Source: JAZDEY01 sp043808325 [NCBI: Candidatus Eiseniibacteriota bacterium]
GTDB taxonomy: Bacteria > Arandabacterota > Arandabacteria > Arandabacterales
NCBI GenBank assembly: GCA_043808325.1
Contig: JAZDEY010000011.1
Coordinates: forward strand, 1 to 19,582
Direction: 5' to 3'
Length of the DNA stretch: 19,582 bases
Shown: positions 7,032-19,305 of the stretch, in pieces
Layout of the letters: every line of letters starts with the position of its first letter
How positions within the stretch are numbered: the first letter of the stretch is position 1
Notes under the pieces: model-generated
Told to the model about the DNA's origin: nothing
Seen by the model: only the letters and a program-made list of their open reading frames with translations
Database searches by the model: none
Made by a program: the position numbers and the translations under genes

Positions 7032-7457
7032 ATGACCAGGGTACTCATAACGGGGTTTCTACTCGCACTTCTGCTTGCCGCCTCTCCGGTCTCATCTGGT
7101 GCATGCGCACTCTGCAATTGCACTTCCTCGGTATGGGCACAGAGTTACACACCTTGTGTGGGCGACACGGTGGAGATCTCGGCCTGCATCGTAGATTGCT
7201 ACTGCACCCCGCTTGTCGGCAAACCAGTTACGTTCTACTCGACGCGGGGCGCGGACGAGCAGATTCTCGAGATGACCGTGCTTACCGACACCAATGGTAT
7301 GGCGGAATCGAAGATCACAACAATGGTGCCGGGGGTTTCGCAGGTTTACGTCGAGGTCCTCGGCGTCCACATTGGACCTAGCCCTGCCATCAATTGGAGT
7401 GGGGCGAGTTCGGTTGACGCGAGCACCTGGGGGCAGATCAAAGCGCAGTTCAGGTAG
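7032..7457 (+). CDS. Secreted 141-aa Ig-like (Big-1-type) protein with TWGxIK tail
   Basis: The product opens with a signal peptide (MTRVLITGFLLALLLAASP, cleavage probably near residue 22). The mature part is cysteine-rich (CALCNC, PCVGD, DCYC), suggesting disulfides outside the cytoplasm. The stretch from SYTPCVGDTVEI through GKPVTFYST to TDTNGMAESKI has the pattern of a bacterial Ig-like group 1 domain: vulnerable linker, then T-D-xx-G-xA. It ends with ASTWGQIKAQFR at the stop. It is a full-length paralogue of the equally long protein at 10198. GGGGG at 7022-7026 is the ribosome binding site. It heads a probable two-gene operon with 7559. The biochemical role is unknown. Confidence 0.75.
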   Translation: MTRVLITGFLLALLLAASPVSSGACALCNCTSSVWAQSYTPCVGDTVEISACIVDCYCTPLVGKPVTFYSTRGADEQILEMTVLTDTNGMAESKITTMVPGVSQVYVEVLGVHIGPSPAINWSGASSVDASTWGQIKAQFR

Positions 7458-7469
7458 GGAGAGAGCGGG

Positions 7470-7493
7470 CGGATCCAGGACTCCTTTGATCCG
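7470..7493 (+). other. Hairpin between the two genes of the first secreted operon
   Basis: CGGATC (7470-7475) and GATCCG (7488-7493) are perfectly complementary, with AGGA and TCCT able to pair inside. It sits in the 101-base gap between 7457 and 7559 and lacks a T-run. It could tune expression or mRNA stability between the two genes. Confidence 0.25.
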
Positions 7494-7558
7494 ATGCATA
7501 TCGTGAAATGGATGGGCGAGATCCTGTCAGTCGGCTAATGGAGCTGAGAGGCAAAACG

Positions 7559-9769
7559 ATGCGACGAGGCATGCTTCTGTCGGTTGCTCTTCTAGTTGCA
7601 GTTAGCTGTACCCAGGCCATCGCGGGCGCCAATCCTCATAACAAGATAGCAATACATGTGGTGCCTCACGGGGTTGCCTGTAAGAGTCTTCCCACGTTTT
7701 CGAATTGTTCCCAGATCGTCACGACCTACGCCAGCCTCGGGGACTTAGACGTCATTCCGGTCTTCTTCGGCCTTGATTCGACCACGGTGGTCGAATTCGG
7801 TTTGACCTGGCCGGATGCTTGGGGCAGCATCGCCTACGTCAGATGTGCGGGCGATCTCTCTATCGGCACCATCACTTACTCCGGCGAGGGGATGGCGACC
7901 GTGTGGAGAACGTGCCAGCGTGCTTGGGCTGTGCCTCACGGCTACGGGTGGCTCGCCGCTTCGAGCCCTGGCTGGGTCGCGCCCACCCCTAATCCGGCAA
8001 CAGGGGATTACGGTGTCGTGGACTGTGGTTATTTCGGATGGGATCCCCAGCACGACGATCCCGAGGCAGTATTCCGTTCGGGCATAGGCGGCCCTGTCGG
8101 GGCCGATCCATGCGACGCAACGTTCCAGCCAATCGACCTCGCGAAGACAGACGACGCGGGTGGTTACTGCGTGTACCTCGGCGACACCTTGACCTACGGG
8201 ATCACCTACGCGAACTCGCGGAATTCAGCGGACGTGCACAACGTGACACTCACTGATCGCATGCCTCGAGAAACCATCTTCCTGTCGTCGACGTCGGGGG
8301 GAGTTTATGATCAGGGGACTCATACCGTCACATGGCCATTGGGCACGCTCAGTCCGGGTGCCGGTGGTTCGGTCGGTGTCGTCACGTCGGTAAACGTAAA
8401 CACCACGATGACCATTGGCAACACCTGTACAATCACCGGCGATGAAACCCCGCCCAACGCGGCCGCCAAGCCTACAGATGTTTGCGGCAACGTATTCGCG
8501 CCTCTCAACCTCACGAAGGCCAGCGATGTAATCGGCGATTGCGTGAACCAAGCTGGGAGAATCACGTATTCGATCATGTACGACAACAGATCCAACATGC
8601 GAGATGTTCACAACATCACACTTGTGGATAGCCTTCCTGCCCAGACCACCTTTGTTTCCGCACCGGGCGGCACCTACGATCCCAATGCCCGTACGGTGAC
8701 GTGGCGGCCTGGCAGTCTTGCGCCGGGCGCATATGGGTCAAAGGATGTTACGGTTTCCGTCGACGCGCCCCGCGGAGCAACGCTCACCAACATCTGCTGG
8801 ATAGCTACCGACGAGACTCCCCCTAACCGTGCGGCGGTCACCGTCCAAGTTTATGATCCAGCCCTGATCCTCACCAAGACCGACGGCCTCGGCGGACAAT
8901 GCGTGAACCATGGGGCCAACCTGACTTACTCGATTGCCTACGAGAACATGCACGTTGGTGAGAACTTGCAAGGCGTGGTCCTCAAGGACAATCTGCCTAG
9001 CGGCGTGGCTTTCGTGTCGGCATCTTCTGAGGGGACGTACGATCCGAGTACTCGCGCGGTCACGTGGTCCATTGGCACATTGGCTGGGGGCGCCAGCGGA
9101 TCGGAGCAGGTCACGGTTTGGGTGACCGCTAACCGCGGCACAATCCTCGCAAACCGGGCCGAGTTCACTTGCCAGGAATTGTCTGCCAAGAGCGCGAGCA
9201 TCACCACGCGGGTCTGCGGCCAATACCAGCGCAACACGTACTTTAAGGTGGCCATCCACGTCAAGTCTCACGATGTCGAGTGCGAGAGCGTGCCGGCCTT
9301 TCAGTACTGCACGCAGATATCAACTACCTATCAGGGCTGTGGTGAGGTCGATGTGGTTCCCGTCTTCTTCGGTCTGGCGGAGTATTCCGTGGTCGAGTTC
9401 GCAGTGGACTGGCCCCAGGAGTGGGGCAGCTGCACTTTCACTCGCTGCAAAGGGGATATCGCAGTTGGCAATATAGTTCATTCCGGTGATGGAATTGCGA
9501 TCGCATGGATAGACTGCCAGTACGCTATCATCGTCGCCCCCGGCTTTGTCTCTCTCCATGCGACGACACCAGGGCTCATCTCACCCCATTCGAACCCGGC
9601 AACCGGTGAGCTCGACGTGGTGAACTGCGCTCCTTCTCCGGGGCCTTACGTGGATTACCCGGTCGCAGTCATTCGCGCCGGCGTCTGCGGCGCCACCGGC
9701 GAAGTCCCGTGCAGCACCACCCGCGTCCAGCCCAGCACCTGGGGCCAGATCAAGGCGCAGTTCAAATAG
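7559..9769 (+). CDS. Large secreted protein: duplicated novel domain flanking three DUF11 repeats, TWGxIK tail
   Basis: This 736-residue protein starts with a signal peptide (MRRGMLLSVALLVAVSC..., cleavage near residue 23). The ATG at 7559 is chosen over 7508 because AGAGG lies seven bases upstream and the hydrophobic segment then begins at once. A cysteine-containing domain (about 28-185, KIAIHVVPHGVACKSLPTF ... DVIPVFFGL ... EFGLTWPDAWGS) is followed by three DUF11 repeats starting near 192, 315 and 436, each with LTK, a YxxxYxN core, and T(V)TWxxGxLxxGAxGS. The first domain then recurs near 559-720 (KVAIHVKSHDVECESVPAF ... DVVPVFFGL ... EFAVDWPQEWGS). It ends PSTWGQIKAQFK. DUF11 repeats are typical of long cell-surface proteins; a surface role is inferred. 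I do not recognise the flanking domain. Confidence 0.75.
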   Translation: MRRGMLLSVALLVAVSCTQAIAGANPHNKIAIHVVPHGVACKSLPTFSNCSQIVTTYASLGDLDVIPVFFGLDSTTVVEFGLTWPDAWGSIAYVRCAGDLSIGTITYSGEGMATVWRTCQRAWAVPHGYGWLAASSPGWVAPTPNPATGDYGVVDCGYFGWDPQHDDPEAVFRSGIGGPVGADPCDATFQPIDLAKTDDAGGYCVYLGDTLTYGITYANSRNSADVHNVTLTDRMPRETIFLSSTSGGVYDQGTHTVTWPLGTLSPGAGGSVGVVTSVNVNTTMTIGNTCTITGDETPPNAAAKPTDVCGNVFAPLNLTKASDVIGDCVNQAGRITYSIMYDNRSNMRDVHNITLVDSLPAQTTFVSAPGGTYDPNARTVTWRPGSLAPGAYGSKDVTVSVDAPRGATLTNICWIATDETPPNRAAVTVQVYDPALILTKTDGLGGQCVNHGANLTYSIAYENMHVGENLQGVVLKDNLPSGVAFVSASSEGTYDPSTRAVTWSIGTLAGGASGSEQVTVWVTANRGTILANRAEFTCQELSAKSASITTRVCGQYQRNTYFKVAIHVKSHDVECESVPAFQYCTQISTTYQGCGEVDVVPVFFGLAEYSVVEFAVDWPQEWGSCTFTRCKGDIAVGNIVHSGDGIAIAWIDCQYAIIVAPGFVSLHATTPGLISPHSNPATGELDVVNCAPSPGPYVDYPVAVIRAGVCGATGEVPCSTTRVQPSTWGQIKAQFK

Positions 9770-9789
9770 GTGTCCAAGGGCTGACACCT
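9768..9789 (+). terminator. Weak hairpin at the end of the DUF11 gene
   Basis: AGGTGTC (9768-9774) pairs with GACACCT (9783-9789), seven base pairs beginning within the stop codon. The following sequence has only short T stretches (CTTCTTT), so termination is plausible but not assured. Confidence 0.3.
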
Positions 9790-9910
9790 TGAGCCTTCTT
9801 TGCAGACTCCAATAATTCCCCTGGTGATCGCGCAGCTCGATAGGCGGACACCCCCGCAACCAAACGGTCACCCCGCTTTGTGCCATGGGGAAATCAATAC
9901 CATTTCGATG

Positions 9911-10098
9911 GCGGGGTAGAGGGGATTCACGGGAGGGAGGCCACCATCTGCGCCATTTCAAGGCACTCTACGGATCTGAGGAAGTTGCGAAAGTCGTCCA
10001 ACGAGGCCTGCCAGCGTCCTCACCATGGTCTCTTTGTCGCACTCAAGCAATGCCACTGGCTTCTGCTGCGTGGTTCACGATGTCTATTCCCAACCCCA
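9911..10098 (-). repeat. Interspersed repeat, copy A
   Basis: This 188-base unit closely matches 16000-16188: in the part from CAACGAGGCCTGCC to CAACCCCA I count three mismatches in about 100 bases. Shorter matches occur at 11991-12116, 14584-14791 and 17833-17922. On the minus strand, from TGG (10013-10011) to TGA (9929-9927), it reads 29 codons starting WQASLDDFRNFLRSVECLE and ending VASLP-stop. An in-frame TGA lies three codons before the Trp, so no start codon is available and the frame is probably a gene remnant. The plus-strand end CAACCCCA leads into the promoter block of the gene at 10198. The rest of the gap (9790-9910) shows nothing I can identify. Confidence 0.8.
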
Positions 10099-10111
10099 TC
10101 GTTACGCCATA

Positions 10112-10197
10112 CGGTTGCCTTTCGAATATCCTGCGGTCATCCCTCGTGCTATAATGATGGTCCACCGTAGCCGCAGAGTTGAAAGGGGGACGCTCTG
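10112..10197 (+). promoter_or_regulatory. Extended -10 promoter and leader of the second secreted operon
   Basis: TATAAT at 10150-10155 is preceded by TG at 10147-10148 in CGTGCTATAATG; no -35 box is seen at 16-18 bases. The leader GCAGAGTTGAAAGGGGG places the Shine-Dalgarno sequence eight bases before ATG at 10198. The block CGGTTGCCTTTCGAATATCCTGCG upstream (its first 20 bases are the relevant part) matches that before 7032. Confidence 0.6.
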
Positions 10198-10623
10198 ATG
10201 ATGCATGCATTTCGACCGGGATTGCTGTGCGGTTTTATCATGCTTGGATCGGGCCTCGCATTGGCCGCCGGGGTACCATGCGGTGGAACCTCAAAGGTCT
10301 GGGCGGGGAGTTACTCGCCTTGCGTGGGCGACACTGTGGAGATTTTCGCACTTGTTAAGGACTGCTACGATAATGTTCTTCCTAACAAGTCCACTACTTT
10401 CTATTCGACCCGCGGGGCTACAGACATAATCATTGGCCCAGAAACCGTTACCGACAAGAATGGGATTGCGAGGGCTAAGATCACTAGCCTGGCGCCAGGG
10501 GCATGCCGGGTCTATGCGGTTGTGACGGGGGTTCAGCTTTGGTCGTCTCCAGAGATGGCCTGGAGTGGTGCCTCTTGGTGCGAAGCAGCTACTTGGGGCT
10601 CAATCAAGTCCCTGTATCGTTAG
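10198..10623 (+). CDS. Secreted 141-aa Ig-like protein, paralogue of the 7032 product, TWGxIK tail
   Basis: A signal peptide (GLLCGFIMLGSGLALAAG, cleavage near residue 24) precedes a domain that aligns end to end with the 7032 product: TSKVWAGSYSPCVGDTVEI, DCYDN, TFYSTRGA, TDKNGIARAKI, PGACRVYAVVTGV, MAWSGAS. It ends AATWGSIKSLYR. The first cysteine cluster (CALCNC) of its paralogue is reduced to CGG here. ATG at 10198 or 10201 could start it; 10198 gives eight-base Shine-Dalgarno spacing. It heads an operon with the lipoprotein at 10634, just as its paralogue heads one with the DUF11 protein. Function unknown; an Ig-like group 1 fold is a family inference. Confidence 0.75.
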   Translation: MMHAFRPGLLCGFIMLGSGLALAAGVPCGGTSKVWAGSYSPCVGDTVEIFALVKDCYDNVLPNKSTTFYSTRGATDIIIGPETVTDKNGIARAKITSLAPGACRVYAVVTGVQLWSSPEMAWSGASWCEAATWGSIKSLYR

Positions 10624-10633
10624 GAGGCAAGAT

Positions 10634-11866
10634 ATGGCGAAGCGTTTCGTCACTCTCTGCGTGGTGGCAGCCGCCATGGCAGTGCTGACTGCGGGATGCG
10701 GCGATGATGGGTGCCCCAAGCCTGTGATTTTGGTGCTCGTGTATCCGGGCGCAGTGAACGTGGAGATCTGCCAGACAGCCTCAATTGCCGCGCAGGTCAC
10801 AGGAGGAAAGACTGGCGATGTGGACTGGTACATCAACGATGTTCTCGGCGGGGGCTCTGCCCTGGGCACCGTAACTCAGACGAATCCGGCAACCTATACT
10901 GCCCCTGAGAGCTTCCCGCCCGTAGATGTCCAAATCGTGGTGAAGGCGGTGGCCCGCGAGGACACCTCAAAGGTAGGCAGCTGCCTCATCAATCTGGGGT
11001 TGACGAAGATCTATGTCAATTGCACGGCAGGGCATGATCAAGGCGGGACGGGGTGCATCACCAGACCTTTCAAGTCCATCACGCGTGGGCTCGCCGCGGC
11101 AGGAGCGGGGATGACCGTTCTTGTCGCCCCTGGTGTCTATGATGCGACCAACGGCGAGGTCTTCCCGATCACCGTGGCGAACGGCGTCTCCCTTGTCGGA
11201 CAGAACTGGGAAACCACGATCATACGGGGGCACAGCGAGTCTACATTCGATCGGACGGCAGTCTTTCTCTGCGGCATGCACTCCGCGCTGAGGAGGTTCA
11301 CCCTCGAAGAGGGACCGACAATCCAAGACGCTTGGCAATACGGGGTATTCGTGCTTGAGGAGGCTACCGGCACGGTCATCGACAGCATAAGGATGTCGGA
11401 GCGGACACGCATATCGAACCTGACCATGATCGGAACCACCGACGTCACTGTTGAGAACTGCCGTTTCGTGATAGATGACCATGAGCACAAGGGTGGAGGA
11501 ATAGCGAGCGTCGTCTCTAACACCGGGACTGTTATCAGGAATTGCGTGGTTTCAGGATTCGGCGAGGGCATCTTCTTTAACGATTCATCAGATGCCTTGA
11601 TCGAAGGCTGCACGATGGAGAACAATCAGATCGGTGTGAACATGTGCTGCTACAATGCGCCGGACAGTAACCCCAACCCTGACCTCGGTGGAGGGGGCCG
11701 GGGCAGCGCGGGTGGCAACATCATCAGGAACAACGACATTTGTGGCCTGCGGAATCCGACCAGCAATGCCATCTATGCAAGGTTCAATACCTGGACTCAC
11801 AATCCGCCTGTGGCGGGCCAAGACTACTGCACCGGGGAAGGTACAGGGAGCATAGTCTGGCAGTAG
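10634..11866 (+). CDS. Lipoprotein with Ig-like segment and DUF1565/parallel beta-helix domain
   Basis: The 410-residue product starts MAKRFVTLCVVAAAMAVLTAGC, a lipoprotein signal with lipobox LTAG-C (Cys22 lipidated). Residues about 30-120 look Ig-like (YPGAVNVEI ... DVDWYINDVLGGG ... NPATYTAPE). From about 126 (KIYVNCTAGHDQGG...FKSITRGLAAA) it has the DUF1565 pattern, followed by right-handed beta-helix repeats (TVIRNCVVSGFGEGIFFND, ALIEGCTMENNQIGVN, GGNIIRNNDICGL). Such proteins bind or cleave polysaccharide or act as surface scaffolds; no catalytic residues can be assigned here. The upstream stop (10621-10623) overlaps its Shine-Dalgarno sequence (TAGGAGG), so the two genes are tightly coupled. 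It lacks the TWGxIK tail, in keeping with a different anchoring route through lipid. Confidence 0.8.
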   Translation: MAKRFVTLCVVAAAMAVLTAGCGDDGCPKPVILVLVYPGAVNVEICQTASIAAQVTGGKTGDVDWYINDVLGGGSALGTVTQTNPATYTAPESFPPVDVQIVVKAVAREDTSKVGSCLINLGLTKIYVNCTAGHDQGGTGCITRPFKSITRGLAAAGAGMTVLVAPGVYDATNGEVFPITVANGVSLVGQNWETTIIRGHSESTFDRTAVFLCGMHSALRRFTLEEGPTIQDAWQYGVFVLEEATGTVIDSIRMSERTRISNLTMIGTTDVTVENCRFVIDDHEHKGGGIASVVSNTGTVIRNCVVSGFGEGIFFNDSSDALIEGCTMENNQIGVNMCCYNAPDSNPNPDLGGGGRGSAGGNIIRNNDICGLRNPTSNAIYARFNTWTHNPPVAGQDYCTGEGTGSIVWQ

Positions 11867-11990
11867 GACCGGAAGTACGTCAGAGCGCGTCCCGGTGAGT
11901 AGCTGTCCAGAGGCCGACGGTGGTTCGCTCTTGTCACGGGTTGGGGTTTCTCCGAGAATGATGTCTACTCGGTGGTAAGGTAGTGGGTAT
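11867..11990. other. Intergenic stretch after the lipoprotein gene
   Basis: Nothing identifiable. ACCGG (11868-11872) and a later CCGGT could pair weakly, without a T-run. Together with repeat copy B and the propeller fragment this fills the 441-base gap to the response regulator. Confidence 0.3.
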
Positions 11991-12116
11991 TCAGTCGAGG
12001 GCCCCGACCATACCTGCCACCTTCAAGCCTTCTTCCGACCTCAGAAGGTTGCGAAAGTCGTCGTGCCACGCCTGCCAGGTTCCTCATCGCGGTGTCCTTA
12101 TCGCACTCAGTCGACG
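11991..12116 (-). repeat. Interspersed repeat, copy B (diverged)
   Basis: The minus strand from TGG (12077-12075) to TGA (11993-11991) again gives exactly 29 codons, starting WQAWHDDFRNLLRSEEGLK. The core GTTGCGAAAGTCGTC is shared with the other copies. As in copies A and D, an in-frame TGA stands three codons before the Trp. The plus-strand right part (TCATCGCGGTGTCCTTATCGCACTCA) matches copy A less closely. Unlike the other copies, it is not followed by a plus-strand secreted gene but by a minus-strand propeller fragment. Confidence 0.65.
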
Positions 12117-12149
12117 CCGATCGTTCGTGCTGCCTTCATTCGTGCAACC

Positions 12150-12290
12150 TACTGACCCCCCGCCATAGGTCGCAAACCACCTGTTGCCCGAGGCGTCAAT
12201 CGCCATTCCGGTTACATTGTCGTCAGCCAAACCGCTGTTCGAGGTATTGTAAGTCGTCCAGGTCTGTTCCGGAGGGTTAGCGCCTGGCAC
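12150..12290 (-). pseudogene. Fragment of a two-component-regulator-type beta-propeller protein
   Basis: The minus strand reads PEQTWTTYNTSNSGLADDNV, then TGMAIDASGNRWFATYGGGSV. This W-x-x-Y-(N/D)-T-x-N-S-G-L ... A-x-D-x-x-G-N-x-W-(F/V)-A-T pattern is characteristic of Reg_prop propeller repeats in secreted and sensor proteins. The frame is open only from about 12305, just past the response regulator stop, and runs on into sequence next to repeat copy B before stopping at 12084. Upstream residues VGLLSGAVPGA look like the end of a signal peptide. It is therefore probably the N-terminal remnant of a lost secreted propeller gene; expression from the GTG at 12290 cannot be excluded. Confidence 0.55.
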
Positions 12291-12307
12291 TGCGCCACTG
12301 AGTAGGC

Positions 12308-12697
12308 CTACTCGCCCAGGATCTTATTGACGGCTTCGAGGAAAACGGCTGGATTGACGGGTTTCTCAATGTATTCCCTCGGCGCATGACCGTAGAACTT
12401 GCCCATGTCTTCGCCCGAGAAGCCCATGCCCACCTTGTCGCGGATGCCCGTGAGCATAATCACGGGGATGGATTTGAGGCTGTCTTCCTTCTGCATCGCT
12501 TCGAAGACCTCAAAACCGTTCATCTTCGGCATCTGCACGTCAAGGACCACCAGGTCGGGCCTCTCCGCCCGTATGGCAACAAGCCCAGCCCTGCCGTCGT
12601 TCTCCGATATGACCCGGCGGCCGGCGCCCTCTAGGATCTCGGTCACGAAATCAACGGCGTCCTGTTCATCATCAATTACGAGTATGGTCTTCGGCAT
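12308..12697 (-). CDS. Single-domain response regulator (CheY-like receiver)
   Basis: The 129-residue protein is a stand-alone receiver: acidic pair D9-D10 (VIDDE), phospho-acceptor Asp53 in LVVLDVQMPKMNG, Thr83 in IMLTG, and Lys112 in EKPVNP. There is no output domain, so it would signal through protein contacts. AGGAGGT lies just upstream of the ATG. It is divergent from the FHA-GAF histidine kinase, which is the obvious partner. The insert between the Thr and Lys (KVGMGFSGEDMGKFYGHAP) is longer than in a minimal receiver. Confidence 0.9.
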   Translation of the reverse strand: MPKTILVIDDEQDAVDFVTEILEGAGRRVISENDGRAGLVAIRAERPDLVVLDVQMPKMNGFEVFEAMQKEDSLKSIPVIMLTGIRDKVGMGFSGEDMGKFYGHAPREYIEKPVNPAVFLEAVNKILGE

Positions 12698-12727
12698 CGT
12701 TCGATTACCTCCTCAGGTTTGGTTTCC

Positions 12728-12756
12728 AGTTTGAGCATATGGATGGAGAATGTCAA
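12728..12756 (-). promoter_or_regulatory. Possible promoter for the response regulator
   Basis: On the minus strand a perfect TTGACA (12756-12751) is followed, after 17 bases, by CAAACT (12733-12728), a weak -10. The predicted start would leave a leader of about 24 bases carrying AGGAGG. Confidence 0.4.
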
Positions 12757-12877
12757 CCCTAATTGCGGGGTCGCATCCGGGGCGCAGGTGTGCTACCATG
12801 GATGATCGAGTATGCCATCTTGGATCCTGCGTGTGCAATGAGGTGACCAGCCGCGCATCAATGTGGAGGTGAGACCG

Positions 12878-14503
12878 ATGCCCACGGTGCGAGTCTCGCA
12901 CAAGGGACAGCCCGCCGAACCTGTTACCCTCGACACTGGCGTTTACGTCATAGGACGCGATCCCTCATCCGATGTCGCCCTGGACGACAAGACCGTCTCC
13001 AGGTCGCACGCCAGGCTGGAGGTAACCAGCCTGGGCCCCACGATCGCCGTTGTGCTGGAGGACCTGGACTCCAGAAACGGCACGGTGGTCAACGGAGAGA
13101 GAATCAAGAGGCGCGAGCTATTTGCGGGCGACGTTGTGACTATCGGGAGCCATACGCTCACCTTCGACGGTCTTCCTGTGCCGGCTGCCGGAGGCAACTC
13201 GGCCACCAGTGGCGCCGTCGCCCGAGCGGTCCACGAAACCATGATCGTGGGCAGCCTTGACGCCCAGCGTGTCGGCAGGGGAGAGGATGTGAGGGATGGG
13301 CAGGTGAGCGCCGAGGCGCTCACCCACAGGCTGGCGCTCATCTATCAGATCGCCGAGAAGCTATGCGGCAGGCTGGCCGTCTCCGAGATAGCCGACAGTT
13401 TCCTGGGCGTTCTCCTGGATGCTTTCAAGGGTGCCGACCGGGCGGTCCTGCTTCTCGAGGATCAAGCAAGCTGCCGGTTGAGCCCGGTCGCGGTGAAGGC
13501 CCGCGACGGCTCCGGCGGTGAAACCGGGATCTCCCAGACTGTCGTGGAGACCGTGCTCGGCGAGCGGCGTTCGGTCCTATGCCGCGACACCACCTCCGAC
13601 CAACGCTTCAGCACCTCCCAAAGCCTGCTGGACCTTCGCATTTGGTCCATCATGTGCGCGCCGCTGCTGGCCTCAGACAAGATCATCGGGATGGTAGAAG
13701 TTGACAGTTTGCAGGCAGCGTCACCTTTCACCGAAGATGATCTACGGTTGCTCACAGGCCTTGCCGGGCAGGTTGCAATAGCCATCGAGAACGCCAGGCT
13801 CTATGGCCAGATTGAGCAATCCAAGCGCTTGGCGGCAATCGGCGAGACGGTCGCGGGGGCCGCCCACTGCGTTAAGAACGTTCTCAACGGGATCGAAGGC
13901 GGCCTCTTCATTGCCCGCAAGGGCCTGGATGCGGGGAGCGGCGAGAAAGCCGAGAAGGGCTGGGGGATGCTCGAGCGCAACAGCGCCTTTCTCAAGACCA
14001 TGGTGCTGGACATGCTCGATTATTCGAAGGAGCAGGTGATCGAGCTGGCCGAGACCGACCTGAGCAGCCTGCTGGGCGAGGTGGTGGCGCTGGTGGAGGG
14101 GAAGGCGGCCGAGGGCGGTGTCAGCATTGCGGTGGATGTCGACCCTGAACTGGACCGGGCCGTGCTGGATTCCAAGAGGATCAAGCGGGCGCTGGTCAAC
14201 ATCGCAGGCAACGCCGTCGAAGCGACTTCTCCCACCGGAAGCGTGCGGCTGTCGGCTTCGCCCTCTGGGGAAGGACTGTTCACTATCTCTGTCAGCGATA
14301 CTGGGAGCGGCATTCCCGAGGACGCGGTCCAGAAGATCTTTGAGCCCTTCTATAGCACCAAGGGGTCGAAGGGGACGGGGCTGGGCCTTCCGGTGGCGCG
14401 CAAGATCGTCGAAGAGCACGGAGGCCTTCTGGAGTGCGATTCGGTGGTCGGCCGGGGGACGACCTTCAGAATGACACTTCCCCTGCGGCGGCCCTCGAGC
14501 TGA
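12878..14503 (+). CDS. FHA-GAF sensor histidine kinase
   Basis: The 541-residue protein has an FHA domain (about 20-95, with GRDPSSDVALDD, SRSHARL and LDSRNGTVVNG), a GAF domain (about 150-310, ending DLRLLTGLAGQVAIAIENARLY), and a kinase core. The H box is AAHCVKNVLNG with likely phospho-acceptor His330. The ATP-binding domain has N box NIAGNAVEA (about 441), G1 DTGSGIPED (about 474), F box FEPFYSTK and G2 GTGLGLPVARKI (about 500). No membrane segment is seen, so it should be cytoplasmic. Start chosen at ATG 12878 because GGAGGT (12865-12870) precedes it; the GTG at 12863 would remove that site. FHA domains bind phosphothreonine peptides, so cross-talk with Ser/Thr kinases is possible but inferred. 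Confidence 0.9.
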   Translation: MPTVRVSHKGQPAEPVTLDTGVYVIGRDPSSDVALDDKTVSRSHARLEVTSLGPTIAVVLEDLDSRNGTVVNGERIKRRELFAGDVVTIGSHTLTFDGLPVPAAGGNSATSGAVARAVHETMIVGSLDAQRVGRGEDVRDGQVSAEALTHRLALIYQIAEKLCGRLAVSEIADSFLGVLLDAFKGADRAVLLLEDQASCRLSPVAVKARDGSGGETGISQTVVETVLGERRSVLCRDTTSDQRFSTSQSLLDLRIWSIMCAPLLASDKIIGMVEVDSLQAASPFTEDDLRLLTGLAGQVAIAIENARLYGQIEQSKRLAAIGETVAGAAHCVKNVLNGIEGGLFIARKGLDAGSGEKAEKGWGMLERNSAFLKTMVLDMLDYSKEQVIELAETDLSSLLGEVVALVEGKAAEGGVSIAVDVDPELDRAVLDSKRIKRALVNIAGNAVEATSPTGSVRLSASPSGEGLFTISVSDTGSGIPEDAVQKIFEPFYSTKGSKGTGLGLPVARKIVEEHGGLLECDSVVGRGTTFRMTLPLRRPSS

Positions 14504-14583
14504 TCGCGGTCTTGACGGACAGGTAGACTGCCTATCGGCGGACGCACTACGGTACACTACGGGGAAGGCAGAGCAGGCGGGAT

Positions 14584-14791
14584 GGCCTCGGGTCTAGTAA
14601 TAATACTAGCTCAAGGCATTCTTCGCATTCTTCCGACCTCAAGAAGTTGCGAAAGTCGTCCTGTATGGCCTGCCAGCAACTTTCTTGTTCTTCCCATTTG
14701 ACTCTCCCAGACCGGGCGGCATTACGCTCACAAATCCGTTGCGCAAGCAGGCAGCTGCATGCCGGGGGTCACGACGTCTTTTCCCAACCCC
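14584..14791 (-). repeat. Interspersed repeat, copy C (interrupted)
   Basis: The core at about 14612-14680 matches the other copies and shares with copy E the variant GTCGTCCTGTATGGCCTGCC. On the minus strand from TGG (14675-14673) it reads WQAIQDDFRNFLRSEECEE; a 9-base tandem duplication (GAAGAATGC) and a palindrome CTAGTA-ATAA-TACTAG (14594-14609) break the conserved end, so the 29-codon stop is lost. The distal part returns at 14768-14791 (GTCACGACGTCTTTTCCC), with unrelated sequence between. The stretch 14504-14583 before it holds nothing I can identify. Confidence 0.65.
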
Positions 14792-14811
14792 ACTTTGGAC
14801 AAGGAATGTGG

Positions 14812-14840
14812 TTGACTGAGCGGCTCGGATCTGATATCCT
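14812..14840 (+). promoter_or_regulatory. Promoter for the 246-aa secreted protein gene
   Basis: TTGACT (14812-14817) and TATCCT (14835-14840) are exactly 17 bases apart, directly after repeat copy C. The sequence GATATCCTCCG contains the ATATCCTSCG block also found before 7032 and 10198. Confidence 0.5.
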
Positions 14841-15041
14841 CCGTTCGTATTTGCAGAGTGTCAGCCAGACGCGAACAGCGAGAGTTCCTGACAATACTTC
14901 AGATTTGGCGCAAAGGGTTTCAGCTCTGCTTGCGCTGATTTCCTTGTGCGCCGCCGGTACGGGAACAACCGAAAGAAAGGAGGTAACCGTAGACGGTTTA
15001 AGGTTCTTTCCACTCTCTTTCGATTCAAGGAGGTATCTGAC
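14841..15041 (+). other. Long structured 5' leader with two Shine-Dalgarno sequences
   Basis: About 195 bases separate the predicted transcription start from the ATG at 15042. CGAAAGA (14970-14976) pairs with TCTTTCG (15016-15022), and AACCGT/ACGGTT (14985-14990, 14993-14998) pairs inside. A strong AAGGAGGT at about 14978-14984 lies within this hairpin, and the true ribosome binding site, AAGGAGGT at about 15027-15034, lies just outside. The arrangement could be a regulatory leader; no known riboswitch is recognised. Confidence 0.35.
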
Positions 15042-15782
15042 ATGAAGAAGTGTTACCAAGCTTTTTTTGCCGGCCTCGTGTGCCTGGTCCTCGCGGCCCC
15101 CGTACTGGCCATTGAGATCGATCCCGCGGACGTCCTCGAGGGCACTCCTATTCCCATCGGAGGGGGCAGCCCCCTCGGCTGTGGCACCACGATTTATGAG
15201 AACATAGGAACGACCTACTTCTACTCGAGCTCGCTCACCCGGAACGTGCTCGACGACGGCAATTTCCCACCGGGCACTGCGCCTGTCTGCATGGGCTGTG
15301 TTCAGCTCGCTTGGCAGCAGAGGACCCAGCAGCAGCTCTATGTAGCCGTGGATTTCTATGACACCGTCGTCCCGGGCGGACCGGTATGCAATCTCACTTG
15401 GCTCGGCGGCTTCACCGTAAACTTCGGAGTCGTAGCCGTGGGTGGCTGGATCTCGAATCCGATCGATATTTCCGCGACTCCCATCACGTTCCCGGACGAC
15501 AGCTGGTGCGTCCAGATGAGGTTCTTCAGGTTGCTCTCCCCGCTCACGTACTCGACCGTCGCCCATGTGTTTTTCGCAAACGGCGGGCCGACCGTCGGGT
15601 CGAACAACGGAACGGTGTTCTGGTGGGATGCGAACAACAATGGCACGTTCGACTGCCCCAGCGAAGCATACTCCTTCGCTGTACCGAACCTGTCACAGTT
15701 CTATCTCAAGCTCTCGGCGACGCTAACACCGAGCGCGACTGAGTCATCGAGCTGGGGGACCATAAAGGCGCTCTATCGTTAG
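15042..15782 (+). CDS. Secreted 246-aa protein of unknown function with SWGxIK tail
   Basis: A signal peptide (MKKCYQAFFAGLVCLVLAAPVLA, cleavage probably after residue 23) is followed by a mostly beta-type sequence rich in aromatic residues, Gly, Asn and Thr, with cysteines (GCGTT, PVCMGCVQLAW, DSWCVQM, TFDCPSE). It resembles small secreted or surface proteins of beta-sandwich type, but I do not recognise a family. The protein ends SSSWGTIKALYR at the stop. The ATG at 15042 has AAGGAGGT eight bases upstream and begins the signal peptide; the open frame from 14946 only extends through the leader. It is a single-gene unit with its own promoter and a strong terminator. Confidence 0.75.
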   Translation: MKKCYQAFFAGLVCLVLAAPVLAIEIDPADVLEGTPIPIGGGSPLGCGTTIYENIGTTYFYSSSLTRNVLDDGNFPPGTAPVCMGCVQLAWQQRTQQQLYVAVDFYDTVVPGGPVCNLTWLGGFTVNFGVVAVGGWISNPIDISATPITFPDDSWCVQMRFFRLLSPLTYSTVAHVFFANGGPTVGSNNGTVFWWDANNNGTFDCPSEAYSFAVPNLSQFYLKLSATLTPSATESSSWGTIKALYR

Positions 15783-15820
15783 TCTACCTACGCGGGCCCT
15801 CGATCTGAACTATGACCCCA

Positions 15821-15854
15821 ACTGCACAGGCGAAATCCTGTGCAGTTTCTTTTT
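15821..15854 (+). terminator. Intrinsic (Rho-independent) terminator
   Basis: ACTGCACAGG (15821-15830) pairs perfectly with CCTGTGCAGT (15837-15846) around a six-base loop CGAAAT, followed by the T-rich tail TTCTTTTT. It is 39 bases after the stop of the 246-aa gene and is the only classical terminator I can defend in the window. Confidence 0.88.
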
Positions 15855-15999
15855 GCGCCCCCACTTTCTCACTTTGGACAGTCTAGGCAATTCCTGGTTA
15901 TAAGGATCCGGCGCACAGCGATAGGTAACCAGTCCTAGCAGCAAGCCGTACCCCGCGACCTTTGCGTTGGGGCCACCTCAAGCCTAATGCCTTCTTGAT
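15855..15999. other. Intergenic stretch before repeat copy D
   Basis: No gene, promoter or structure that I can support. It connects the terminator to repeat copy D. Confidence 0.3.
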
Positions 16000-16188
16000 G
16001 CTGGGGTAGAGGGATCTTAGGGGAGCGAGGCCACTAGCTGGCTCAGCTCAAGGCACTCCTCCGACTTCAGAAAGTTGCGAAAATTGCCCAACGAGGCCTG
16101 CCAGCGTCCTCACCATGGTTTCTTTGTCGCACTCAAGCAATGCCACTGGCTTCTGCTGCGTGGGTCACGATGTCTGTTCCCAACCCCA
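16000..16188 (-). repeat. Interspersed repeat, copy D
   Basis: This 189-base unit is the closest relative of copy A. The minus strand from TGG (16103-16101) to TAA (16019-16017) gives 29 codons, starting WQASLGNFRNFLKSEECLE and ending VASLP-stop. Compared with copy A over these codons I count 20 base differences, 11 at third positions, and the stop codon itself differs (TAA versus TGA) while its place is kept. An in-frame TGA lies three codons before the Trp. Confidence 0.8.
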
Positions 16189-16207
16189 TATATACGCAAG
16201 GGTTGGG
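16179..16207. repeat. Inverted repeat at the end of copy D
   Basis: CCCAACCC (16179-16186) and GGGTTGGG (16200-16207) are perfectly complementary around 13 bases. Shorter CAACC/GGTTG pairs occur at the same place after copies A and C. It ends directly at the -35 box of the next gene and could be an operator or the boundary of the repeat. Confidence 0.5.
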
Positions 16208-16237
16208 TAGACAAGAAGCGGAGCTTTCCTGTATACT
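16208..16237 (+). promoter_or_regulatory. Possible promoter for the BNR propeller gene
   Basis: TAGACA (16208-16213) and TATACT (16232-16237) are separated by 18 bases. The leader to the start codon is then about 115 bases. Confidence 0.45.
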
Positions 16238-16357
16238 TGTAGTCGTAGCGGACTTAACGCACGATGCAGGCATGGAACGGTGGTGCATGCCTTCTTTGAG
16301 AGCCTGTAATGGAAACTCGTTTGCTCCTTCTGGCAGACAGGGAGGTGATTGGTCTTG

Positions 16358-17656
16358 ATGGCAGCACGCTGTTTGCCCATATCTGCGGCTGTCGCAGTGC
16401 TTGTTCTCACGCTTGCGTCATCTGGGTTTTCCGAGTGGCAGCACTCGGGACTTGATAGCTCGCAGGTCGATGACGTCGTTTTCCGTGCTGGCAACGCCGA
16501 TGTAGCCTATGCGGCAAACTACGGTTTCAGTCAAGGCGTGTACAAATCAACCGATGCGGGCTCCACTTGGACCCTATCTCATGCAAGCGGCTGGGCACAT
16601 GGGCTGGCCGTAGGCCCGGTCGGCACAGATGCAGTCTACGCCATACATAGAGAGGCGATATTCAGATCCTTGGACGGCGGTGCTACCTGGGTGAAAAAGA
16701 ACAAGGGTTTCAGTTTTGATGCCGGATACGGCCCTTCAGACATCGTTGTCAATCCGGCTCATGCCGAGAGTGTGTACTTAACGACAGGTGGTATGCTTGG
16801 TGGCGGCGGGGTCTTTTGCAGCCCGGATCAAGGAGACAATTGGAATCGGATTGAGATGCCGTATATCAGCTGGAAAGGCCCCATTGATATTGACCCTTTG
16901 AATACTGCTAGGATCTATGTGGCAGAGGGATGGGATGGGCCCCTTCTTCGCACGCTGGACGGTGGCGATAACTGGACCGGCATCTACCCCGACGTCATCG
17001 GGGACATTGCGATCAATCCTCTGAACCCGGACATCATCTATATCACAGTTTCTGGAGACTCTGCCGTGTATCGTTCCGAGGACGGAGGAGACACTTGGAC
17101 TGGTTTCGGGGCCGAGGCTGGCCTCGGGGTCTGGGCAACAGGTGTTGCCGTCAATCCGGTGAATCCGGCCATTGTTTATGCGATAGGCCAAGGGGTTTAC
17201 AGAAGTGATGACGGCGGCACTGCCTGGTCTGATTTCGGTGCAGGGCTACCCGAAGGTGAGTACCTTAGTTCGATCGCGGTTGACAGCGAATTAGGGACGA
17301 CGCTACTGGTTGGCACCTATCAACGCGGAATCTACCGACGCAGTGAGTCGCTGTCAGGGGTCGGGAGGAAGACTGAGTCAAAACAGGTGTTCTTGACTGC
17401 AAGCCCCAATCCGTTCAAGGGCGAGACCGCGATAGCGTATCAGCTCCCCATGGCATCGCAGATGTCGATCGCGGTCTATGATGTTTCTGGAAGAGAGGTA
17501 GCGGCCTTGGTAGACCGCAGCGAAGCGACCGGTCTGCATCAGATAATCTGGGACGGCCGAGACCTCAATGGGCGGCTGGTAGGGCCAGGCATCTACTACG
17601 TGGAGATTCAGGGCGGCCAAGCGAGTGCGGTCAAACCGATCGTGCTCCTTAGGTAA
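16358..17656 (+). CDS. Secreted BNR/sortilin-type propeller with T9SS-like C-terminal domain
   Basis: After a signal peptide (MAARCLPISAAVAVLVLTLASS) the 432-residue protein has at least six BNR-type repeats with the Asp-box: STDAGSTW (about 63), SLDGGATW (103), SPDQGDNW (154), TLDGGDNW (198), SEDGGDTW (239) and SDDGGTAW (283), plus a partial one near 325. The C-terminus (about 347-432) has ASPNPFKGETAIAYQLP, VYDVSGREVAAL, WDGRDLNG and GIYYVEIQ, the pattern of FlgD-like/T9SS type A sorting domains. It is thus probably an exported, surface-attached or released protein. Start ATG 16358 is 12 bases after GGAGG (16341-16345); TTG at 16355 or 16349 has better spacing and is possible. It lacks the TWGxIK tail of its neighbours. 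Confidence 0.85.
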   Translation: MAARCLPISAAVAVLVLTLASSGFSEWQHSGLDSSQVDDVVFRAGNADVAYAANYGFSQGVYKSTDAGSTWTLSHASGWAHGLAVGPVGTDAVYAIHREAIFRSLDGGATWVKKNKGFSFDAGYGPSDIVVNPAHAESVYLTTGGMLGGGGVFCSPDQGDNWNRIEMPYISWKGPIDIDPLNTARIYVAEGWDGPLLRTLDGGDNWTGIYPDVIGDIAINPLNPDIIYITVSGDSAVYRSEDGGDTWTGFGAEAGLGVWATGVAVNPVNPAIVYAIGQGVYRSDDGGTAWSDFGAGLPEGEYLSSIAVDSELGTTLLVGTYQRGIYRRSESLSGVGRKTESKQVFLTASPNPFKGETAIAYQLPMASQMSIAVYDVSGREVAALVDRSEATGLHQIIWDGRDLNGRLVGPGIYYVEIQGGQASAVKPIVLLR

Positions 17657-17832
17657 GAAGAAGTCCCCCGAGAGTGCCGGGCCAAGATGTGCTTCTCAGC
17701 ACTGAGACACGTCCCGCTTGACGTTCCCCCAGGCACTGACCCGGCCTGGATCAACGACGGGGGCACGCCCATAGCCTCAGTTCACCTCCGTGACACGCCC
17801 GCAGAGATGATGGAAACTCAGGTGTGGGGTTC
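17657..17832. other. Intergenic stretch before repeat copy E
   Basis: No gene or structure that I can support. An open frame starting at 17687 runs through this stretch and the repeat but has no coding signature. Confidence 0.3.
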
Positions 17833-17922
17833 TCATCGGAAGGAGGCCATCAATTGGCTTATCTCCAGGCACTCCCCCGACCTCAGAAAGTTGCGAAAGT
17901 CGTCCTGTATGGCCTGCCAGCG
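17833..17922 (-). repeat. Interspersed repeat, copy E
   Basis: The minus strand from TGG (17919-17917) to TGA (17835-17833) again gives exactly 29 codons, starting WQAIQDDFRNFLRSGECLE. It shares the GTCGTCCTGTATGGCCTGCC variant with copy C. The part distal to the Trp codon (GTCCTCACCATGG in copies A and D) is absent here, so this copy is truncated on its right side. It lies about 55 bases upstream of the promoter of the decayed beta-helix gene. Confidence 0.75.
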
Positions 17923-17969
17923 TTTACTTCAGCAGGAGACCTGGACTGATCCTTCTGGTCTGGCGTCCC

Positions 17970-18026
17970 TTTTCGTGCTATACTGGAAATCCAACGTAAC
18001 GGCAGAGCTGAAAGGAGGGTCGTCCC
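17970..18026 (+). promoter_or_regulatory. Extended -10 promoter and leader of the decayed beta-helix gene
   Basis: TATACT (17979-17984) is preceded by TG (17976-17977) in TTCGTGCTATACT. The leader GCAGAGCTGAAAGGAGGG closely matches that before 10198, and the distance from the -10 box to the ATG is 42 bases in both. Confidence 0.6.
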
Positions 18027-19305
18027 ATGAAGCGTATGCTACTGGCATTGGGCCTGGTTGTTCTTGTCACTGGCCAGGCCCGTGCGCGCACTTGGGCGAT
18101 AAGGTCTGATGGAAGTGGGGATGCTCCAACTGTCCGCGCGGGTCTTGACTCGGCGCGGGCCGGGGATACGGTACTCGTGTATCCGGGAGAATATGAGGTG
18201 GCCGGGGGCCCCGTCAGGGACTACGTGAATCTGGTCAGTTACGGCGGCCGCGATGTAACGACCTTATACAACAGCACCGAGCCGGACACCCCGATAATCT
18301 ACCCTGGGTGCGACGGGGTGCTCATAAAGGGCTTTTGCTTCAGACGGGTGCGACAATATCTGGTTCAGGGAATATTCGCAGGCGGGTGCGACCGGCCGCC
18401 TCTCCAGCGCAACGAGTTCGTCGAGAATTCCTTCATTGACCTGGCCGCCACCGACTGGGGAGGAGGAATCTGCCTCTACGAAGGTGGCTCAGCACTTATC
18501 GCAAACAACATCTTTGTCCGCTGTGCGGGTTACGATGCTGGAGGGGCTATATGCTGTAGTGACCAGGCGTCTGCCTTGATTAGGGGCAACGAGTTCTACG
18601 ACTGTCAGTCGCAGTTTGGTGGCGCTATCTCCGGTAGTGGGGGGGGCTCGGTCGAAATCACGGACAACCTCTTTGTCGGGAATTACTCCTGGAAGCAGGG
18701 CGGGGCCATATGGTGCAACTATGGTGAGGTCCCGCTTATCGAGCGCAACACCTTCAAGGACAACAGCGCTTCCTCCGGCGGAGGCGGCATGTTCTTCCAG
18801 CGGTGCACGAGCCAGGTCAGGTACAACATTCTGGACGGCAATGAGGCCGAGTATGGAGGAGGCCTTGTTGCGGGATTGGAGTCTCACGCGATCTGCGAGA
18901 TGAATACCTTCTACGGAAACCGCGCGACGGCCGGCGGATCGGGGATCTTCGGGGCGGGCGGGACAATCCTTGAGGTGCGGAACTGCGTTCTCGCGGCGTG
19001 AGCGGATCGTTACGCGATTGAGTGCGTGGGTGTGGCCACATCCTCACTGGACTGCAACGACCTTTGGGGTAACTGGGGCGACTACGCGGGTTGCGCCCCG
19101 GGTGCATTGGACTTCCGCGAAGATCCGTTGCTCTGCTCGACGGCAGATGGAATGGAATGTCTGTATTTGCAGGAGTGCTCGCCGTGCGTCGCGAGGCCCG
19201 GCTGTGGGCAGGTGGGGGCCTATGGGGTCCGTTGTGACTGTGGTGGGGGCCCTTCAGCCGCGCTGCCGACGACTTGGGGTGCTCTCAAGTCCCATGTACA
19301 GGTAG
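18027..19305 (+). pseudogene. Decayed secreted parallel beta-helix protein with two lesions
   Basis: The frame opens with a signal peptide (MKRMLLALGLVVLVTGQARA) and has beta-helix repeats: ALIANNIFVRC, AGGAICC, ALIRGNEFYDC, GGAISG, VEITDNLFVGN, QGGAIWCN, LIERNTFKDN, AICEMNTFYGN. It stops at TGA 18999-19001 after 324 residues, in the middle of a repeat (LEVRNCVLAA). The same frame continues with clear homology to the usual end of such proteins (SLDCNDLWGN, DPLLC, LYLQECSPC). Near 19291-19293 one extra C shifts the frame: reading without it gives PTTWGALKSMYR and a stop at 19303-19305, the cluster's shared tail. As written, the tail becomes SHVQVEG and runs on to a stop shortly after 19349. 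A truncated 324-residue product could still be made and exported. Confidence 0.75.

What the first reader, a model, noticed from the sequence alone, without database searches (positions are those of the whole stretch)
7032..19305. Shared C-terminal tag [ST]WGx[IL]K[AS]x[FY][RK] on five secreted proteins
Seen directly: the proteins ending at 7457, 9769, 10623 and 15782 terminate in STWGQIKAQFR, STWGQIKAQFK, ATWGSIKSLYR and SSWGTIKALYR, and the ancestral end of the decayed gene (19305) is TTWGALKSMYR. The bodies include an Ig-like domain, DUF11 repeats, a beta-helix and an unknown beta fold, so common descent of the whole proteins does not explain the tag. All carry signal peptides. By analogy with PEP-CTERM, LPXTG or T9SS tails, a C-terminal sorting, anchoring or processing signal is inferred. 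I cannot name a described family for it.
Basis: partly seen in the sequence, partly recalled or inferred. Interest (0 to 1): 0.9.

Follow-up and report, generated by a model that had tools for sequence, protein, structure and literature searches.

The report
Short C-terminal type 9 export tag
Uncultured bacteria of at least three phyla end many secreted proteins with the same ten-residue tail, which looks like a miniature address label for the type 9 secretion machine, whose known labels are much longer folded domains; this is inferred from genomes and not yet shown at the bench.

Summary
Four window proteins end in [ST]WGxIK..[YF][RK]; a fifth copy sits in a broken gene. The tag is far above chance: 122 sites in 8 of 8 genomes of the window's closest phylum, 773 in 20 of 20 of a second, reversed-pattern control 0 in both. 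It sits at the very C-terminus of mostly small signal-peptide proteins with varied bodies, has no membrane helix, and no Pfam or NCBIfam model covers it in the proteins scanned. [quoted passage not shown] Tag and type A T9SS domain never share an ORF (0 of 151), yet tagged bodies are often homologous to type A bodies (22 of 100, against 7 of 440 other ORFs), including tandem neighbours. A small secreted protein elsewhere keeps a nearly invariant TWGSIKAMFR end on a body 30-40% identical. Best reading: a new, short, linear T9SS sorting signal standing in for the folded type A domain. Sortase is absent (0 of 30); exosortase is absent from the window's closest phylum but present in the second. 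Export is untested and the receptor (PorV family/SprA) is inferred. New variant of a known kind.

The parts
7032..7457 (+). Secreted Big_1 (Ig-like) protein, 141 aa, ending STWGQIKAQFR; tag codons 7422-7454
   Evidence: (Big_1 32.6 bits, just under the cut-off of 34.9)
7559..9769 (+). Secreted DUF11-repeat protein (likely start 7559), ending STWGQIKAQFK; tag codons 9734-9766
10198..10623 (+). Secreted Big_1 protein, 141 aa, paralogue of 7032-7457 (47%), ending ATWGSIKSLYR; tag codons 10588-10620
15042..15782 (+). Secreted protein of unknown fold, 246 aa, ending TPSATESSSWGTIKALYR; tag codons 15747-15779
18027..19305 (+). Decayed secreted beta-helix gene: in-frame stop at 18999-19001, frame resumes, tag (19269-19302) split by a frameshift
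16349..17656 (+). Associated, not tagged: secreted Sortilin/BNR-type protein with a T9SS type A (Por_Secre_tail/FlgD_ig) C-terminus
   Evidence: TIGR04183 29.7 bits, cut-off 23; PF13860 34.6 bits, cut-off 27

Best explanation
[quoted passage not shown] The protein enters the periplasm through Sec by its signal peptide (inferred from sequence); the C-terminal tag is then bound by the T9SS translocon, most likely by a PorV-family barrel docked in SprA, in place of the folded type A domain (inferred). Its Lys at -5, hydrophobic -3/-2 and basic last residue may do the job of the C-terminal Lys motif of type A domains (inferred). The protein leaves through SprA and is released or held at the surface. 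Shown here: the tag, its sharp definition, its link to signal peptides, its co-occurrence with T9SS and its exchangeability with type A domains. Not shown: binding, export, cleavage.
For: (1) Tag in 8/8 genomes of the closest phylum (122 sites) and 20/20 of a second (773), reversed control 0. (2) SprA in 38/40 tag-positive against 45/250 tag-negative genomes (Fisher 6e-22, 3e-18 after dropping seven of eight phylum mates). (3) Type A domains >=23 in 39/40 tag-positive genomes, any in 10/30 tag-negative ones; PorU over cut-off beside a PorV-family gene in G001, G011, G017, G226. (4) Tag and type A domain never in one ORF (0 of 151; 0 of 100); 22/100 tagged bodies resemble type A bodies against 7/440 other ORFs (p 5e-12); homologous tag/type A neighbours in L080, L091, L100, L142, L172. 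(5) A small secreted protein with body 30-40% identical ends TWGSIKA[ML]FR; 12 near-full-length copies found by profile all lie in SprA genomes. In 3 of 12 loci a PorV-like gene is close (G017, G067, G209); in G017 a PorD-like gene lies just upstream. (6) A divergent PorV-like/tagged gene pair recurs in G011, G012, G013. (7) No near-miss ORF lacks W, the aliphatic at -6, or K. (8) Literature passages: last 22 residues of the HBP35 domain suffice to export GFP, motif E lysines are needed (PMC10202324); an almost invariant Lys near the end contacts PorV (PMC10994853).
Against: No experiment. The passages read hold that type A domains are recognised as folded beta-sandwiches, largely by shape (PMC10994853, PMC11285876), so a bare peptide would be a departure; and type A C-termini tolerate extensions, whereas the tag is almost strictly terminal. 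45 SprA-positive genomes lack the tag, so the machine does not need it. Two tag-positive genomes lack SprA: G119 (23 type A domains and a PorU over cut-off, so perhaps an assembly gap) and G102 (one AT-rich site, one type A match; perhaps chance). T9SS and tag are both confined to related lineages, so part of the correlation may be shared ancestry; kinship within the 290 is not told. PorV-family genes also occur in 15 of 30 tag-negative genomes. PorV-like neighbours were seen in only 5 of 100 tag loci of the phylum (one of them 5 kb away) and 3 of 12 loci of the small protein; most of these matches, and the PorD match, are below NCBIfam cut-offs. W-G has no counterpart in type A ends. Two AlphaFold models of window proteins were too poor to show the tag's form.
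Confidence: 0.74

Rival explanations
1. The tag is a surface-docking motif rather than the export signal: the proteins leave by some route and the tail clips them to a PorV/PorQ-family barrel or another T9SS-associated outer-membrane protein.
For: PorV-like genes sit near some tag genes; the 40 tag-positive genomes hold 5-28 PorV-family genes each, more than one export shuttle would need; the small TWGSIKAMFR protein lies near PorD- or PorQ-like genes in some genomes, like a component.
Against: Exchange with type A domains suggests the tag replaces the export signal; no type A domain was found in any of 151 tagged ORFs.
Confidence: 0.14
2. The tag serves an unrelated envelope system that happens to share the T9SS's phylogenetic range.
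For: Both are limited to related lineages; the tag is absent from 45 SprA-positive genomes.
Against: Homologous tag/type A neighbours, mutual exclusion within ORFs and T9SS-like gene neighbours are not expected from ancestry alone.
Confidence: 0.09
3. A sortase-, exosortase- or rhombosortase-type processing signal with a dedicated transpeptidase.
For: C-terminal position on diverse secreted proteins, as in PEP-CTERM, GlyGly-CTERM and MYXO-CTERM. Exosortase is present in all 6 genomes tested of the second phylum and in G223, G210 and G082.
Against: No membrane-like stretch in the last 24 residues of any of 151 tails (2 of 151 in the last 35); sortase in 0/30; exosortase in none of the 8 genomes of the window's closest phylum, nor in G115, G253, G041, G120, nor in nine one- or two-site genomes. 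Rhombosortase and myxosortase were not searched.
Confidence: 0.02
4. Chance, or common descent of whole proteins.
For: Two of the five window proteins are paralogues.
Against: Chance expectation 0.05 in the window; 0 reversed-control sites in the 28 genomes of two phyla, 1 in 290 genomes; bodies include Ig-like, DUF11, beta-helix and unknown folds.
Confidence: 0.01

Closest known systems
T9SS type A C-terminal domain (TIGR04183 / PF18962)
   Same: C-terminal, on Sec-signal proteins, in genomes with SprA, PorV and PorU; conserved basic residue near the end and a basic last residue (in 65 type A-like ORFs here K or R at -6 in 59, R or K last in 54)
   Different: About 70-100 residues with an Ig-like beta-sandwich (papers); the tag is about 10-18 residues, matches no model in the proteins scanned, has W-G and Lys at -5, and is carried by smaller proteins (median ORF 238 against 680 codons)
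T9SS type B and type C domains
   Same: Show that one T9SS reads more than one C-terminal signal and that PorP/SprF-type shuttles are signal-specific (PMC12618676 and PMC10202324, passages seen)
   Different: About 100-235 residues; no such match in the Pfam and NCBIfam scans of tagged proteins
PEP-CTERM, GlyGly-CTERM, MYXO-CTERM
   Same: Many unrelated secreted proteins per genome share one short C-terminal signature
   Different: Those end in motif, membrane helix and basic cluster and pair with an intramembrane enzyme (largely recalled; starts of abstracts in the listing); the tag has no membrane helix
LPXTG / sortase
   Same: C-terminal sorting signal
   Different: No membrane helix, no sortase in 30 tag-positive genomes

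Membership tests
T9SS substrates (system level) | Sec signal peptide | tested here: met
   76 of 89 tagged complete ORFs against 131 of 486 untagged ones in loci of the first phylum, 14 of 21 against 3 of 100 in the second, by a crude rule of mine
T9SS substrates (system level) | Occurs with the T9SS machine | tested here: met
   SprA 38/40 tag-positive against 45/250 tag-negative; PorV family in 40/40 tag-positive, 15/30 tag-negative; two tag-positive genomes, G102 and G119, show no SprA
T9SS substrates (system level) | Exported across the outer membrane in a SprA-dependent way | not testable with these tools
   needs a bench test
T9SS type A CTD | Match to TIGR04183 / PF18962 at the C-terminus | tested here: not met
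   none in the window's tagged proteins nor in eight tagged proteins of relatives (six of the eight also against Pfam); none of 151 tagged ORFs matched my HMM of local type A tails
T9SS type A CTD | Seven-stranded beta-sandwich of about 70-100 residues | tested here: inconclusive
   The tag is too short by itself and follows beta-helix or Ig-like bodies; the AlphaFold model gave the tail a pLDDT of about 30-36
T9SS type A CTD | Conserved Lys close to the C-terminus | tested here: met
   Lys at -5; no near-miss ORF lacks it; local type A tails have Lys or Arg at -6 in 59 of 65, so the spacing differs by one
T9SS type B / C CTD | Match to a curated type B or C model | tested here: not met
   no such family reported for the tagged proteins scanned
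PEP-CTERM / exosortase | C-terminal membrane helix plus exosortase in the genome | tested here: not met
   0 of 151 tails (last 24 residues); exosortase in 9/30 genomes: 0/8 of the first phylum, 6/6 of the second, 3 others
LPXTG / sortase | Sortase in the genome | tested here: not met
   0/30
GlyGly-CTERM / MYXO-CTERM | Rhombosortase or myxosortase in the genome | not tested

The most novel reading that the evidence does not exclude
A bare peptide of about ten residues is by itself a complete T9SS export signal, a fourth class beside types A, B and C, used by several related phyla for up to dozens of small secreted proteins per genome and probably read by dedicated PorV-family shuttles; a folded domain is then not needed for T9SS recognition.
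Probability: 0.55. Interest if true: 0.88.

Novelty: new variant of a known kind. Interest (0 to 1): 0.8.

Why it matters
T9SS cargo is found today by models of domains of 70 residues or more, so tagged proteins in uncultured phyla would be missed. The two phyla scanned here alone hold 895 tag sites in 28 genomes (DNA pattern counts). If a ten-residue peptide suffices, the open question of what the translocon reads in its cargo becomes directly testable with a minimal ligand, and the tag could become a compact handle for secreting proteins. It also points to working T9SS machines well outside the Bacteroidota.

Tried and rejected
Own-genome search: no genome is held for the window, so relatives were found through the gene at 1481-3634, which I read by eye as a RecD2-like helicase (L001 66%, L002 62%). 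Eight other genomes (three Latescibacterota, one Zixibacteria, two delta-proteobacterial, one 'bacterium', one Zipacnadum) have no site. Encapsulin-type cargo peptides and translation-arrest peptides were considered from memory and dropped, because the proteins carry signal peptides and number a dozen or more per genome. Sortase rejected; exosortase judged unlikely. The structure of 15042-15782 from a single sequence failed (pLDDT 31); the Big_1 pair gave a fair core and an uncertain tail drawn as a helix, so no fold search was run. A first signal-peptide rule was too loose (205 of 419 untagged positive) and was replaced by a stricter one. A library scan of RNA families found only a tRNA in the window. 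Literature for an existing description: searches showed none in their listings; the library lacks most subscription papers.

Full report
What is there. Four proteins of the window end in STWGQIKAQFR, STWGQIKAQFK, ATWGSIKSLYR and SSWGTIKALYR. With two mismatches allowed the pattern is expected 0.05 times per shuffled window. A fifth, in the beta-helix gene 18027-19305, is broken: that gene has an in-frame stop at 18999-19001, resumes in the same frame, and its tag is split by a frameshift. Bodies: two paralogous Big_1 Ig-like proteins (47% identical), a DUF11-repeat protein, an unknown fold, and the beta-helix. The neighbour 16349-17656 ends instead in a T9SS type A domain (TIGR04183 29.7 bits, cut-off 23).

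The tag in relatives. No genome is held for the window. Its helicase-like protein is 66% and 62% identical to those of L001 and L002, two MAGs named only 'bacterium'. Their genomes hold 25 and 12 tag sites, eight more distant genomes none. All 8 genomes held of that phylum have 11-25 sites each, 122 in all, with 0 for the reversed pattern. Among 290 relatives (these 8 included) 40 have a site, and the reversed control finds one site in one genome. G226 alone has 56; its phylum has 20 of 20 positive genomes, 773 sites with a slightly different pattern, control 0. These are DNA pattern counts; ORFs were checked only in the fetched loci. G223, G115 and G210 are rich too and are in neither phylum list, so at least three phyla carry the tag.

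What the tag looks like. In 126 tails from the first phylum the last 18 positions read G-P-[ST]-A-[TV]-E-P-[ST]-T-W-G-x-I-K-[AS]-[LM]-[YF]-[RK] (W, G and K, and the choices at -6, -2 and -1, are set by the pattern used to collect them). In a second phylum (21 tails) V at -14 (12), E or D at -13 (19) and S/T at -10 (21) recur, while -18 and -17 do not. On 7,523 stop-to-stop ORFs of the fetched loci, 145 have all six key positions at the C-terminus and 15 have five; these miss only G at -8 (8, all Ser), the basic last residue (6) or the aromatic at -2 (1); none misses W, the aliphatic at -6, or K. The motif occurs three times elsewhere in 991,801 residues, each time one residue before the end. 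No tail has a membrane-like stretch in its last 24 residues (0 of 151; 2 of 151 in the last 35), and 5 of 151 have a lipobox-like start.

On which proteins. By a crude rule 76 of 89 tagged complete ORFs carry a signal peptide against 131 of 486 untagged ones in the same loci; in the second phylum 14 of 21 against 3 of 100, with uncertain start codons. Tagged ORFs have a median length of 238 codons. No Pfam or NCBIfam model covers the tag in the proteins scanned.

Link to type IX secretion. SprA, the T9SS translocon barrel, is found in 38 of the 40 tag-positive and 45 of the 250 tag-negative genomes (72 of the 83 pass the curated cut-off; Fisher p 6e-22, or 3e-18 when seven of the eight phylum mates are dropped). 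All 17 genomes with three or more sites have it. Of the two exceptions, G119 has 23 type A domains and a PorU match over the cut-off, so its SprA may be missing from the assembly; G102 has one type A match and one AT-rich site that may be chance. Type A domains number at least 23 in 39 of 40 tag-positive genomes (at most 70 candidates per genome were scored), and occur in 10 of 30 tag-negative ones. PorV-family genes are in 40 of 40 tag-positive genomes (5-28 each), and in 15 of 30 tag-negative ones. PorU-type matches occur in 47 of 50 genomes tested, 35 over the cut-off, and lie beside a PorV-family gene in G001, G011, G017 and G226 among others.

Exchange with the known signal. In the loci of the first phylum, 583 non-overlapping ORFs include 100 tagged and 43 type A-like by an HMM I built from local tails; none has both. 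Of the tagged bodies 22 of 100 resemble a type A body (E 1e-5), against 7 of 440 other ORFs (p 5e-12). In L080 a 212-codon tagged ORF lies between two type A ORFs with homologous bodies; L091, L100, L142 and L172 (the L080 arrangement in another genome) have such pairs. So related proteins use either the domain or the tag. In a wider set 36 of 151 tagged bodies have such a partner. Proximity alone is weak: 26 of 100 tagged and 63 of 440 other ORFs have a type A ORF within 1.5 kb.

A widespread single-copy case. Of the 18 genomes with just one site, 10 carry it on a small secreted protein of about 130-165 residues; G067 (two sites) and G212 (a variant end, STWGSIKALLK) bring this to 12. I call its body FN3-like by eye; no Pfam model passes its cut-off. 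Six copies are 30-40% identical to the first sequence but share T-W-G-S-I-K-A at the end. The same domain without tag occurs inside larger proteins. In G017 the gene follows a PorD-like gene with a PorV-like gene on the other side; in G067 and G209 a PorQ-like gene is close; in the other nine loci no PorV-like gene was found. Several of these matches are below the curated NCBIfam cut-offs, so this is suggestive only.

Mechanism. I propose that the tag is read by the T9SS in place of the type A domain, most likely by a PorV-family barrel in the SprA pore. In favour: a divergent pair of a PorV-like gene (36, 83 and 61 bits, cut-off 90) and a tagged gene recurs in G011, G012 and G013; [quoted passage not shown] Local type A tails have Lys or Arg at -6 in 59 of 65 and a basic last residue in 54 of 65, echoing Lys at -5 and the basic end of the tag. 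Against: the same papers find that PorV and SprA hold a folded beta-sandwich largely by shape, that the domain's fold matters, and that type A ends may be extended; the passages I saw name only types A, B and C. Different type B signals use different shuttles (PMC12618676, passages), which makes a dedicated shuttle for the tag plausible.

Rivals. Docking rather than export, or an unrelated system with the same range, are not excluded. Sortase is in 0 of 30 tag-positive genomes. Exosortase is in 9 of 30: none of the eight of the closest phylum, all six tested of the second, and G223, G210, G082; so it cannot be the general partner, though it is not absent everywhere. Rhombosortase and myxosortase were not searched.

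Novelty. No held paper contains the six tag peptides I searched, and searches listed none on a short T9SS signal; subscription papers are mostly outside the library. I rate it a new variant of a known kind. On re-checking I lowered the main odds slightly (0.75 to 0.74), because most PorV and PorD neighbour matches lie under curated cut-offs.

Noticed in passing
window 9921-10017, 11985-12081, 14596-14678, 16011-16107, 17827-17923: Intergenic repeat of about 85-210 nt, same strand, core ...AGTTGCGAAAGTCGTCC...GCCTGCCAG; 17 copies in the window and in loci of four relatives (G001, G012, G013, G014), six of them within 240 nt after a tag gene, some others after type A genes. No Rfam match and no convincing fold. 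Could be a cassette or recombination site, a regulatory element or a mobile repeat.
   Followed up: partly
window 18027-19305: Decayed tagged beta-helix gene with an in-frame stop and a frameshift inside the tag; could also be assembly error.
   Followed up: partly
L234 (G017), L235 (G067), L238 (G209): Single-copy small secreted protein ending TWGSIKAMFR near PorD-, PorV- or PorQ-like genes; may be an unrecognised T9SS component.
   Followed up: partly
G001, G011-G016, G226 and other tag-positive genomes: Many PorV-family genes per genome (5-28 in the 40 tag-positive genomes); some may be dedicated shuttles.
   Followed up: no
G226, G085, G299-G302, G223, G210, G082: One strong exosortase-family match each (E 1e-59 or better), so these lineages may hold a second C-terminal sorting system beside the tag.
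   Followed up: no
window 10634-11866: Lipoprotein-like beta-helix (DUF1565; best NCBIfam match the LIC10774/LIC10365 surface protein model, far below its cut-off) without tag or type A domain.
   Followed up: no
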